Positions 10,736-31,275 of a DNA stretch of 35,740 nucleotides are shown here, piece after piece. Both the position numbers and the translations under genes were made by a program. Location of the stretch: positions 1-35,740 of the IMG/VR virus record IMGVR_UViG_3300025481_000001. One strand, 5' to 3'. Position 1 is the stretch's first letter. Each line of letters begins with the position of its first letter. A model generated the notes under the pieces. That model was given only the letters and a program-made list of their open reading frames with translations, was not told the origin of the DNA and did not search any database. This DNA comes from a virus.

Positions 10736-11587
10736 ATGTTGCCTCTTGACCCAACGCCGTTTGGTTTCTCGTGGCCCAACGCCCGCGCCTGCGCGGAGCG
10801 TTGCGCCGCGGCGAATGGCCAGACCAGCCGCAGCCTGGAGGCAATGGGCGTGTCAGGCCAGTTCTTCGTGAACCGCGACAGGGACGCCGCGGCGGTAGTC
10901 ATCAACGAGGGCAACTGCATCTCCGTCGCCTTCCGTGGTTCGTCTTGCCTGCGCGATTGGATTCAGAATTTCAAAATCCTGAAAGACCATCCGCGAGCCA
11001 AATACTTCCACGCCTACGATGGACGGCCGGCGGAGATCCATGAGGGTTTCAAGGAGGACGTGGACTCCATCACGGCGGATTTAATCACCGCGATTAAAAA
11101 CTGCCGGCAAGATGCCGGCAGCACGTTGCCGTCCGCCGTCACCGCGGGTTCCGGTCGTGCTGTGCCGGAGACCGGCGGTCCAATCTTCGTGACGGGTCAT
11201 TCCAAGGGCGGTGGGGAGGCTATTGACTTTGCGCTCGAATTACAGCGTCTCAAATTTCCAATTGGCGGCGTCTATACCTTTGGCCAGCCCCGCGTAGGCG
11301 ACCGCGCGTTCGCTAATCTCTATAACGAAACCCTGTATGAAGAGACGTTCCGCGTCGTGAATCAAAACGACATCGTGCCGCGCGTGCCCGGCGTGCTGCT
11401 GGGCTACAAACATTGCGGACAGGAAATCTTCCTACCCGTCGGCGGCGGCTGGGACCTGAATCCGTCGCTGTTCACCACGTTTTTCTCGGATGCGCTTGGC
11501 CTGTGGGCCGCGTATCGGCACGAGACGGACGTGCTCATGGCCGACCACAACATCTTCGCGTATCAGAAACGGATTCAAATTTTATGA
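10736..11587 (+). CDS. Class 3 lipase-like alpha/beta hydrolase with in-frame palindrome
   Basis: The start is placed at MLPLDPTPFGFSW; the longer frame begins inside heptamers. The 283-residue protein has the class 3 lipase (triacylglycerol lipase) layout: the oxyanion region ISVAFRGS (about 62-69), the nucleophile elbow VTGHSKGG with Ser about 156, a TFGQPRVGD strand, Asp about 212 in NDIVPRVP, and His about 271 in MADHNIFAY. All triad candidates are present, so it could hydrolyse ester lipids. Residues about 122-131 (NCRQDAGSTL) are the 25-bp palindrome read in reverse, placed in the loop before the nucleophile strand. It overlaps the methylase gene by ATGA. A lipase is unusual in phages. 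Confidence 0.85.
   Translation: MLPLDPTPFGFSWPNARACAERCAAANGQTSRSLEAMGVSGQFFVNRDRDAAAVVINEGNCISVAFRGSSCLRDWIQNFKILKDHPRAKYFHAYDGRPAEIHEGFKEDVDSITADLITAIKNCRQDAGSTLPSAVTAGSGRAVPETGGPIFVTGHSKGGGEAIDFALELQRLKFPIGGVYTFGQPRVGDRAFANLYNETLYEETFRVVNQNDIVPRVPGVLLGYKHCGQEIFLPVGGGWDLNPSLFTTFFSDALGLWAAYRHETDVLMADHNIFAYQKRIQIL
11101..11125 (-). repeat. 25-bp palindrome, inverted copy inside the lipase frame
   Basis: An exact complement of the family consensus (CGTGCT, then GCCGGCA and TGCCGGC arms around TCT, then AG). It adds CRQDAGST to the lipase without breaking the frame. Confidence 0.95.
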
Positions 11588-12375
11588 GTCAGTCCTCCCC
11601 ACCCACCCAACGCGTGCGCCCGATCCTGCGCTGGCCGGGAAGCAAAAGCCGGATGTTGAAACACATCCTGCCGATGATTCCACCGCACGTCTGCTACTGC
11701 GAACCGTTTGCCGGAAGCCTGGCGGTCCTGCTGGCCAAGGACCGGGCCGAGGTGGAAATCGTCAACGACATAAACGGCAACCTGGTCGCACTGTACCGCA
11801 ATTTGCAATTCCATCTGCCGGCGCTGATCGGCGAGTTGAACTGGTTTTTGTCCAGCCGGGAAAACCTGCACGACTTCATTGCGCAGCCGGGCGTCACTGA
11901 GTTGCAACGCGCGGCGCGGTTTCTCCTGGTGAACCGCACGAGCTTCGGCGGGAACATGCACAGCTTCGGCGTGGCGAAGACATCCGGCGGTGGCGTGAAC
12001 TTTGAACACAAAACCATTGCCGGACTTTTAGGCAGGGCGCGCGAGCGGCTCAACGGCGTGGTGGTGGAGAACATCCCCTACGAACGTTGCTTCGCCAACT
12101 ACGATTCGCGCGAATCGTTTTTCTTTCTCGACCCGCCCTACCTGGAGACGCGCCAGTCCGCTTATGAGAGCTGGAAGGCCGCCGACATGCGCCAGCTCCG
12201 CAGCCGCGTGGAGAAGCTGAAGGGCAAATGGATTCTGACTTTGAATGATGTGCCACTAAACCGAGAGCTGTTCTCTGACTGTCATCTCCAAACCACGGTG
12301 TGCAAAAACCGGCTGGCGAATAACCGGAAGCACCCGGAGATGAAACTCGGAGAGCTGATCATCACCCCTCAATAA
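11584..12375 (+). CDS. D12-class DNA adenine N6-methyltransferase (Dam-like)
   Basis: The 263-residue protein shows the D12/Dam order: RWPGSKSRM near the N-terminus (17-25), the SAM-binding motif EPFAGSLAVLL (40-50), NDINGNLVALY (61-71), then the target helix region RTSFGGNMHSFG, and the catalytic DPPY at about 183-186. The reaction is transfer of methyl from SAM to adenine N6 in double-stranded DNA. In a phage it would protect DNA from host restriction or affect replication timing; Mu itself modifies adenine through Mom. Its ATG overlaps the lipase stop (ATGA, 11584-11587), so both are co-translated. Confidence 0.92.
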   Translation: MSQSSPPTQRVRPILRWPGSKSRMLKHILPMIPPHVCYCEPFAGSLAVLLAKDRAEVEIVNDINGNLVALYRNLQFHLPALIGELNWFLSSRENLHDFIAQPGVTELQRAARFLLVNRTSFGGNMHSFGVAKTSGGGVNFEHKTIAGLLGRARERLNGVVVENIPYERCFANYDSRESFFFLDPPYLETRQSAYESWKAADMRQLRSRVEKLKGKWILTLNDVPLNRELFSDCHLQTTVCKNRLANNRKHPEMKLGELIITPQ

Positions 12376-12377
12376 AT

Positions 12378-29498: not shown

Positions 29499-30968
29499 AT
29501 GGCCGGCGTTTTACAATTCACCCTTGGTCTTCAAGCCTCCCAATTTCTCACCCAAATCGGCGTGAGCAGCAGCGCAATGGTTGCCTTCGCCGGCGCCGGT
29601 GAAATCGTCAAATCTTCCTTCGAGTCCATGTTCTCCGCCATGGAACGCGGCGCGCACCTGGGCGAACTGAGCGCCCGCACCGGCGAGACCGTCTCCCACC
29701 TTTACCAATTGCAGGAGATATTAAAACAAACGGGTCTGTCCGCCGATTCCGCCGCGCCCATGATTCTCCGCGTCCGCAAGGCCCTCAGCGGCGTGAACGA
29801 GATGGGCGGCAAAACCAATTCCATCTTCGCCGCCCTCGGATTGGACCGCGCCAAACTCGCCTCGGAAAGCCCCCTCGATGCCATCCAGCAAATCACCGCC
29901 GCCCTGCACAAGATGAACCCCAACGACGCCGTCGGCGCGGCCAATGGGTTGTTCGGCCGGTTTTCAGCCGGCGACTTCATGCAAATGGCCGGCAGTGCGG
30001 AGCAGGTCGCCGGCGCGCTGGCTCATAGCAAGACTGAAGCCGCCTTGTTCGCCTCCAACGCCAAAGCCTTCCGCGAAGTTGGAGATTTAATGACCGAGAT
30101 CAAGTCTCACATCGAGGGCTTCTGGGCTGGACTCGCCTCCGGCCTCGCCCCGGAGATCATCAAGATCGAGAAATATATTTCCTCCATTGACTTCACCACC
30201 ATGGGCCTCGCCGTCGTGCAAGCCTTCAAGGACGGCAGCGTCACGGAAATCATCGTGCAGGGCTTCACCGCCGCGTTTGAAAAGGTCACCAACATCATCG
30301 CCGGCACCCTCGGCAACAGCGGTTACTGGATCGGCATCGTCCAGGTGGCCATCGGCGAATTTGGCTTGTTGCAGGCCACGGTGGCAAAAATGTTCCTGTC
30401 CCTCGGCGACCTGCTGGTGGCCGCCTTTGACACTTTATTCCAGAAAATCTACGAGGGCATTGGCAAGATTCCCAAGCTCGGCAAGTTGGTCGGGCTGGAC
30501 AACTACAAAGCCCAATCCTTCACCGAAAATTACCAGCATCAGAAAGACGCAAACAGCGATGCGAGCGGATTTCTCGGCGCCATGTTCAAGGCCAGCGCCG
30601 CCATGACGGCCGAAGGGATAAAAAACCAGGCGAAAGCCCTGGTTGATGCCTACAAAAACTCCGGCGGTCCGGAGCAGGACAAATTTGCCGCCCTGGTTGC
30701 CGGCCTCGTCTCGCGCATCCCCAAAGCTGTGGCCGAGGAAACCAAGTCCGGCCCGGCGACGGGCGTCGGTTTTGCCGAACCTTACAAACCAGAAGTCACC
30801 GACCTTGAAAAAATCGGACTCATCTTCAACAGCAGCAACGGCGGCGGCGATGTCCAACAGCAGGTCGCGCGCAACACGGCGGACATGCTCGATATGCAAA
30901 AAATCACCAACGATCACCTGGCAACCATCGCCGGGAAAGATTTCGGCGACAAACTCGTAAACGATTAA
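29499..30968 (+). CDS. Tape measure protein (489 aa)
   Basis: MAGVLQFTLGLQASQFLTQI is the usual beginning of small tape measure proteins, followed by helical segments (SFESMFSAMERGAHLGELSA, RTGETVSHLYQLQEILKQTG, SADSAAPMILRVRKALSG) known from Mu-like and other phages, where 'F..t..s...L..l...a...G' patterns recur. A central hydrophobic part (WIGIVQVAIGEFGLLQATVA, KMFLSLGDLLVAAFDTL) is the membrane-active region. At 489 residues it predicts a fairly short tail (about 1.5 A per residue gives roughly 70 nm). It follows the putative chaperones as expected. Confidence 0.85.
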   Translation: MAGVLQFTLGLQASQFLTQIGVSSSAMVAFAGAGEIVKSSFESMFSAMERGAHLGELSARTGETVSHLYQLQEILKQTGLSADSAAPMILRVRKALSGVNEMGGKTNSIFAALGLDRAKLASESPLDAIQQITAALHKMNPNDAVGAANGLFGRFSAGDFMQMAGSAEQVAGALAHSKTEAALFASNAKAFREVGDLMTEIKSHIEGFWAGLASGLAPEIIKIEKYISSIDFTTMGLAVVQAFKDGSVTEIIVQGFTAAFEKVTNIIAGTLGNSGYWIGIVQVAIGEFGLLQATVAKMFLSLGDLLVAAFDTLFQKIYEGIGKIPKLGKLVGLDNYKAQSFTENYQHQKDANSDASGFLGAMFKASAAMTAEGIKNQAKALVDAYKNSGGPEQDKFAALVAGLVSRIPKAVAEETKSGPATGVGFAEPYKPEVTDLEKIGLIFNSSNGGGDVQQQVARNTADMLDMQKITNDHLATIAGKDFGDKLVND

Positions 30969-30969
30969 A

Positions 30970-31275
30970 ATGAAAATCATCTCCAAACTCAAGGTGGCCA
31001 CACCGCAAGGTGTTGCCGAAGGCCACTGGCACGAACCGCAGGGCGTCCGCTCCACCGTCCATGATGAACCCCGGCCCGGCGTCATCCGCAAACTCTCTCT
31101 CGGCGATGCCGGCCTCCTCATGCAGCGCGGCCAGTTCCATGCCGGCATCACCCTCGCCGCCCTTATCGAAATTCTGGTGAGCATCGAACCCGACCTCAAA
31201 TGTCCGCCCAAACCCAAGATGACCAGCGACGACCTGCCCCTCCAACGTGCTGCCGGCATCTTGCCGGCAGAATAA
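30970..31275 (+). CDS. Tail protein, unknown; C-terminus from palindrome (101 aa)
   Basis: It starts 1 nt after the tape measure stop (MKIISKLKVATPQGVAEGHW). The body has beta and helix content (RSTVHDEPRPGVIRKLSLGD and a helix near AALIEILVSIEPDLK). The last residues RAAGILPAE are the 25-bp palindrome at 31246-31270, so the natural stop was probably replaced by TAA after it. The position fits a distal tail protein, but the family is unknown. Confidence 0.68.
   Translation: MKIISKLKVATPQGVAEGHWHEPQGVRSTVHDEPRPGVIRKLSLGDAGLLMQRGQFHAGITLAALIEILVSIEPDLKCPPKPKMTSDDLPLQRAAGILPAE
31246..31270 (+). repeat. 25-bp palindrome at the C-terminus of the small tail protein
   Basis: A perfect copy read RAAGILPA, then GAA and TAA. 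Followed at 31276-31310 by AACCCTC heptamers. Confidence 0.95.

What the first reader, a model, noticed from the sequence alone, without database searches (positions are those of the whole stretch)
11101..31270. A 25-bp palindrome, seven perfect copies, with no stop codon in any of six frames
Copies at 11101 (inverted), 16018, 23135, 23552, 27765, 28099 and 31246 are identical. Read in each frame the element gives RAAGILPA, VLPASCRQ, CCRHLAG, LPARCRQ, CRQDAGST and AGKMPAA, none with a stop. Five copies lie inside well-supported genes (lipase, methyltransferase-glycosyltransferase twice, FN3-like, small tail gene) and one in a weak ORF; only one is intergenic. Identity across a phage genome suggests recent or active spread. 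The behaviour is like Rickettsia palindromic elements (RPE) in ORFs, but the sequence is not one I recognise.
Basis: seen in the sequence. Interest (0 to 1): 0.82.

Follow-up and report, generated by a model that had tools for sequence, protein, structure and literature searches.

The report
Bacterial REP hairpins inside phage genes
Seven identical copies of a tiny hairpin-forming DNA repeat sit in a Mu-like phage, several inside its genes; the same repeat is scattered through Verrucomicrobia genomes, and its likely mover is a transposase gene found in frame inside an essential bacterial gene, so one small bacterial repeat family appears able to colonise both hosts and phages without breaking reading frames.

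Summary
Confirmed: CGTGCTGCCGGCATCTTGCCGGCAG occurs seven times, perfectly, at the stated places; chance predicts none. It is a 4-nt unpaired tag (CGTG) plus a 21-nt hairpin. Absence of stops in six frames is expected about half the time, so it is uninformative. The window is a Mu-like phage. The exact element is in one other viral contig and 48 stretches of bacterial genomes, all Verrucomicrobiota. There it shows compensatory stem changes and forms inverted pairs with tags outside (39 of 61 copies), the REP/REPIN architecture. Among RAYT transposases of that order, only one lineage is flanked by this hairpin type (4 of 4 genomes; none of 45 other RAYT loci); that RAYT lies in frame inside PriA, and orthologous priA genes lack it. 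Best explanation: a new, CGTG-tagged REP family of subdivision 3 Verrucomicrobia that entered the phage as single units, probably moved by a host RAYT acting in trans. It is not a Rickettsia palindromic element. Phage relatives support insertion, but no exact empty site was available, one copy overwrites rather than lengthens its gene, and several REP-rich genomes lack the PriA RAYT.

The parts
11101..11125 (-). REP copy (exact), inside lipase ORF 10688-11587, reads CRQDAGST in the gene's frame, in the variable loop before PIFVTGHSKGGG
   Evidence: relative L008 has a different palindrome at the same loop
16018..16042 (+). REP copy (exact), in the tail of weak ORF 15851-16105, 16 nt before the portal ATG at 16059
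   Evidence: relatives L144 and L145 have a shorter small ORF there and no REP
23135..23159 (+). REP copy (exact), inside the FkbM methyltransferase domain of ORF 22856-24361; replaces residues without length change
   Evidence: predicted helix 89-98
23552..23576 (+). REP copy (exact), in the linker between the methyltransferase and glycosyltransferase-like parts of ORF 22856-24361; 6 residues more than L144
   Evidence: disordered 231-245 in the model
27765..27789 (+). REP copy (exact), intergenic, 3 nt after the stop of ORF 27360-27761
28099..28123 (+). REP copy (exact), near the 5' end of ORF 28043-28552, ahead of a signal-peptide-like stretch
31246..31270 (+). REP copy (exact), forms the C-terminal codons of ORF 30970-31275; relative L135 aligns only to residue 87
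28626..28650 (+). REP relative with compensatory stem changes, CGTGCTGCCAGCGTCCCGCTGGCAG
   Evidence: the same variant occurs in host genomes
28556..28589 (+). diverged REP relative with the same head and tail and a longer inner stem, CGTGCTGACCGGTCCCGCACTGCGGGACCGGCAG
5012..5045 (+). diverged REP relative, CGTGCTGTCCGGTCCCGCACTGCGGGACCGGCAG
22898..22935 (+). decayed or composite REP remnant (TCCCGCATTGCGGGACCGGTCATCTTGCCGGCAGTGCC) coding for the N-terminal tail of ORF 22856-24361
24051..24072 (-). second REP-like palindrome family (GTGCCGGAGGCCGGCGCTCCAA on the minus strand), within a 15-residue in-frame extra segment of ORF 22856-24361 absent from relatives
   Evidence: disordered 399-413

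Best explanation
The element is a REP: a single-stranded-DNA hairpin with a conserved unpaired tag, here CGTG. It belongs to a family native to subdivision 3 (Limisphaerales-type) Verrucomicrobiota, where it mostly exists as REPINs (two inverted REPs, tags outside). Shown: sequence identity, tag and hairpin, covariation, dimer geometry, presence in 27 of 320 genomes of the order, and presence in the phage as unpaired singlets. Inferred: the family is moved by a REP-associated tyrosine (HUH) transposase whose lineage is embedded in frame in priA and is flanked by the same hairpin type. This enzyme would nick and transfer the folded single strand, acting in trans on the prophage while it sat in the host chromosome or replicated there. 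Copies survive where they do not break reading frames or folding: gene ends, gaps, linkers and loops.
For: Seven perfect copies, chance 0. ssDNA hairpin, z -5.9. Exact matches in 48 stretches of bacterial genomes, all titled Verrucomicrobiota, and in one other viral contig. Compensatory stem variants in hosts and in the window. 39 of 61 host copies have an inverted partner 12-74 nt away on the tail side, 0 of 61 on the tag side. REPINs lie in frame in PurL, RecJ, aconitase, U32 peptidase and DinG-like genes (genes named from sequence knowledge). RAYT with intact HUH (MPNHVH) and tyrosine (YIRENP) motifs inside PriA of G007, G238, G063, G091, flanked by GTGCTGCC...GGCAG hairpins, against 0 of 45 other RAYT loci examined. 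PriA of G005, 91-94% identical in the shared parts, lacks the ~250-residue insert. All four of those RAYT genomes are among the 27 of 320 with the element (about 4e-5 if genomes were independent, my arithmetic). Phage relatives lack the REP residues at the compared sites.
Against: REP-rich G002 (22 copies), G005 (19), G008 (13) and G019 (12) have PriA without this RAYT, and the RAYTs checked in G002 have no such flank, so presence of the REP does not require that enzyme now. No exact empty site was found in a near-identical phage. The copy at 23135 replaced residues without changing length, which simple insertion does not predict. The phage holds only singlets, whereas the REPIN is thought to be the moving unit (PMC3116915). 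Copy density in the phage (7 in 36 kb) is far above any sampled host (44 in 4.4 Mb), and its true host is unknown.
Confidence: 0.74

Rival explanations
1. The copies spread inside the phage by recombination, template switching or gene conversion between hairpins, with no transposase; the RAYT link is only historical.
For: The copy at 23135 is length-neutral. At the lipase site the relative L008 has another palindrome at the same position with a similar CAGCACG end. G002 and G005 have many copies without the PriA RAYT. Copies are perfect and single.
Against: Flanks outside the element are unrelated, so long homology cannot have guided most copies. The strict pair geometry in hosts and the exclusive flanking of one RAYT lineage point to an enzyme.
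Confidence: 0.17
2. The hairpin is a functional site kept by selection, for example an RNA processing or attenuation hairpin at gene ends or a gyrase/IHF-type protein site, as proposed for BIMEs.
For: Three or four copies lie at gene boundaries (16018, 27765, 28099, 31246). Nine of the ten listed copies and relatives (5012, 28556, 28626 included) are on one strand.
Against: Three copies are internal to genes, host copies lie on both strands in many unrelated genes, and relatives of the phage have no such dispersed hairpins.
Confidence: 0.07
3. Assembly or binning artefact, or chance.
For: Metagenome-derived record.
Against: Each copy has its own flanks, chance is 0 of 100 shuffles, and the same element is in 14 separately assembled records.
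Confidence: 0.02

Closest known systems
REP / REPIN elements with RAYT (TnpA-REP) transposases; Di Nocera 2013 (PMC3733652), Bertels and Rainey 2011 (PMC3116915), Corneloup 2021 (PMC8266576)
   Same: 20-40 nt hairpin with an unpaired conserved 4-nt end, covarying stem, inverted pairs with tags outside, RAYT flanked by the repeat, perfect-palindrome type
   Different: Tag is CGTG, not GTAG or CGTC; many copies lie inside genes; phage copies are singlets; the linked RAYT is inside priA, not free-standing
Intragenic GTAG REPs of Opitutus terrae (Verrucomicrobia), PMC3733652
   Same: Same phylum; among the species with the most REPs inside ORFs in that survey, including DNA repair genes such as uvrA
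   Different: Different tag and a different lineage; not described in phages
Rickettsia palindromic elements (RPE; RPE-4 and RPE-6 are CGTC REPs per PMC3733652)
   Same: Palindromes kept in frame inside genes
   Different: Different tag and host phylum; per PMC3733652 CGTC repeats have no transposase linked, here one RAYT lineage is

Membership tests
REP (repetitive extragenic palindrome) | 20-40 nt palindrome, dispersed, many copies | tested here: met
   25 nt; up to 44 copies in one genome; 7 in the phage
REP (repetitive extragenic palindrome) | Conserved unpaired tag at one end | tested here: met
   CGTG next to the stem in the searched copies; preceding bases A 84% and A 66% over 61 host copies; PriA flanks show that the first tag base varies (NGTG)
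GTAG or CGTC super-family of REPs | Tag fits GTAG or CGTC | tested here: not met
   Tag is CGTG; CGTC families also have stems with AT residues first and 4-5 nt loops, here a CTG-starting stem and a 3-nt loop
REP (repetitive extragenic palindrome) | Compensatory stem variation | tested here: met
   CCGGCA/TGCCGG, CCAGCG/CGCTGG, CCGACA/TGTCGG variants
REP (repetitive extragenic palindrome) | Mostly extragenic | tested here: inconclusive
   In the phage 3 of 7 are clearly internal to genes; host copies lie in PurL, RecJ, aconitase and U32 peptidase; the overall host fraction was not measured
REPIN | Inverted pair of REPs, tags outside | tested here: met
   Hosts: 39 of 61. Phage: 0 of 7, so phage copies are REP singlets, not REPINs
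RAYT-linked REP | RAYT gene flanked by the same repeat | tested here: met
   PriA-clade RAYT in G007, G238, G063, G091; 0 of 45 other RAYT loci
RAYT-linked REP | RAYT cleaves and transfers the cognate REP | not testable with these tools
   Needs biochemistry
Rickettsia palindromic element | RPE sequence families in Rickettsia | tested here: not met
   All 48 exact genome matches are Verrucomicrobiota; tag differs from CGTC-type RPE-4/6
MITE | Terminal inverted repeats with target-site duplication | tested here: inconclusive
   No shared duplication seen in flanks of the seven copies; no exact empty site available

The most novel reading that the evidence does not exclude
A REP family whose transposase is inherited as an in-frame internal segment of essential genes (PriA here; other RAYT lineages sit in DinG-like, DnaE, ClpB, HsdR-like and AlaRS-like genes), an intein-like niche without evidence of splicing, and from there moves stop-free hairpins in trans into host and phage reading frames.
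Probability: 0.42. Interest if true: 0.82.

Novelty: new variant of a known kind. Interest (0 to 1): 0.62.

Why it matters
I found no report of REPs populating a phage genome (paper searches; limited library). A phage carrying the repeat gives a direct route for spread between hosts and a small, fast-evolving genome in which REP gain could be watched. The in-frame RAYTs inside PriA and other housekeeping genes make a long-standing question, how REP transposases persist for so long, directly testable: loss of the RAYT by deletion risks loss of an essential gene.

Tried and rejected
Six-frame openness as a sign of adaptation: rejected, expected about half the time. A phage-borne mobiliser: no Y1_Tnp in the window or in the other viral contig. 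The other RAYTs fetched from G002, G005, G007, G008 and G013 as the mover: no matching REP beside them. Known phages with the element: only weak chance-level hits among 50,697 phage records. Other phage relatives with dispersed hairpin repeats: none in the loci checked, only short tandem-type repeats. A DNA alignment of the PriA junction was placed on the wrong stretch of L188 and told nothing; the protein comparison replaced it.

Full report
What is there. The seven copies are real, perfect and at the stated coordinates; 100 shuffles gave none. Each is CGTG followed by a hairpin with a 9-bp stem and a 3-nt loop. Flanks outside the element differ, apart from a preference for AA before and A after it. 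The window also has a member with compensatory stem changes at 28626 and older relatives at 5012, 28556 and 22898. The window is a virus record with a Mu-type portal, a minor head protein, a head protease, a tape measure protein and weak matches to transposition proteins: a Mu-like transposable phage. It carries no RAYT.

Where else it occurs. An exact scan found one other viral contig (L008) and 48 stretches in bacterial genomes, every one titled Verrucomicrobia or Limisphaerales. In the order of UBA7542 (G007), 27 of 320 genomes hold the slightly degenerate pattern, with up to 44 copies, and the reversed-pattern control is 0. Stem variants keep pairing. In hosts 39 of 61 copies have an inverted partner on the tail side 12-74 nt away and none has one on the tag side: the REPIN geometry described by Bertels and Rainey (PMC3116915) and the head-head dimers of Di Nocera (PMC3733652). 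None of the seven phage copies is paired (and the sequence itself for the inverted copy); with 22 of 61 host copies unpaired, seven unpaired by chance would be about 0.0008 (my arithmetic).

What it does to genes. In the phage, the 11101 copy lies in a variable lipase loop; the 69% identical lipase of L008 has a different palindrome there, and carries its own exact copy of the element just before its start codon instead. In the methyltransferase-glycosyltransferase gene, copy 23552 lies in the inter-domain linker, 6 residues longer than L144, and is predicted disordered; copy 23135 sits in a predicted helix and is length-neutral against L144, L122, L123 and L126. That gene also has a 15-residue extra segment with another REP-like palindrome, a REP-derived N-terminal tail and a C-terminal tail from the GAGAGGGCCGGGGTGAGG repeat; the four repeat-derived segments other than 23135 coincide with the low-confidence stretches 1-37, 231-245, 399-413 and 484-501 of the model. 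In hosts, REPINs run in frame through genes I read as PurL, aconitase, RecJ, a U32 peptidase (same site in G007 and G005) and a DinG-like helicase (names from sequence knowledge, not from a family search).

How it likely moves. Y1_Tnp hits are present in 12 of 15 records searched. In G007 one lies inside priA, in the same frame, between ...ALDKIITGMDAK and FLLHGVTGSGKTE. The best relatives of this RAYT are likewise inside long open frames: PriA in G238, G063 and G091, and, by sequence reading, DinG-like, SNF2-type, restriction-modification, DnaE, ClpB and sugar-kinase/pyrophosphorylase-like genes. HUH and tyrosine motifs are intact in nearly all. In the tree each host gene tends to hold its own RAYT lineage; the four PriA RAYTs group with 98/93 support. 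Only the PriA lineage is flanked by GTGCTGCC...GGCAG hairpins. PriA orthologues 91-94% identical in the shared parts (G005) lack the insert, and G226 and G231 have a different RAYT at the same spot, while other genomes have short repeat-derived peptides there. The step from this association to actual mobilisation of the phage copies is inference, based on what is known of TnpA-REP (PMC8266576).

Limits. G002, G005, G008 and G019 are rich in the REP but have PriA without this RAYT. No near-identical phage without a copy was found, so insertion is supported only by relatives at about 65-74% protein identity. The phage's host is not known; it is inferred from the repeat, from 7-bp tandem repeats of the kind seen in these genomes and from a 49% identical portal in G275 of that order.

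Comparison and verdict. It works like, and by most tests is, a REP family; the CGTG tag falls outside the two published super-families. It is not an RPE. New variant of a known kind: the phage habitat and the embedded transposase are the new parts.

Noticed in passing
L095 843-3914 (-); L156-L185; L186-L191: A group of RAYT transposases lies in frame inside long host genes in subdivision 3 Verrucomicrobia (PriA, DinG-like, DnaE, ClpB, HsdR-like, SNF2-like, AlaRS-like in L109 and L121), flanked by repeat-derived peptides, with catalytic motifs kept. The PriA linker before GVTGSGKT takes different RAYTs or repeat peptides in different genomes.
   Followed up: partly
window 3180-3215, 9348-9378, 10684-10721, 17850-17880, 20627-20650, 21832-21858, 26410-26438, 28189-28219, 29460-29491, 31274-31305: At least ten tandem arrays of different 7-bp units (TTGGACT, CTTCAGC, TTCGATG, GACATTG, TCACGTT, AACCCTC), mostly near gene ends; similar peptides (LSTLNPQPST) occur in the PriA linker of some bacteria.
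   Followed up: partly
window 18698-18759, 21711-21772, 24323-24346, 25272-25333: Another dispersed repeat, CTCCCTCTCC...GGAGAGGGCCGGGGTGAGG, partly palindromic; one copy makes the C-terminus of ORF 22856-24361.
   Followed up: no
window 9933, 10531, 22898: Three copies of the palindrome GTCCCGCAATGCGGGA (or its complement), a further small hairpin family.
   Followed up: no
window 9103-9167 and 19386-19450: 65-nt repeat, 83% alike (CCGCGCCTTGTCCGCCTTGTCCGCCGCGTGCGCTTACGC), with a neighbouring 49-nt repeat at 9012 and 19264: a duplicated block.
   Followed up: no
window, ten REP copies and relatives: Nine of ten are on the + strand, including 5012 where genes run on the - strand; could reflect strand preference at replication forks, as known for IS200/IS605 enzymes, but the number is small.
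   Followed up: no
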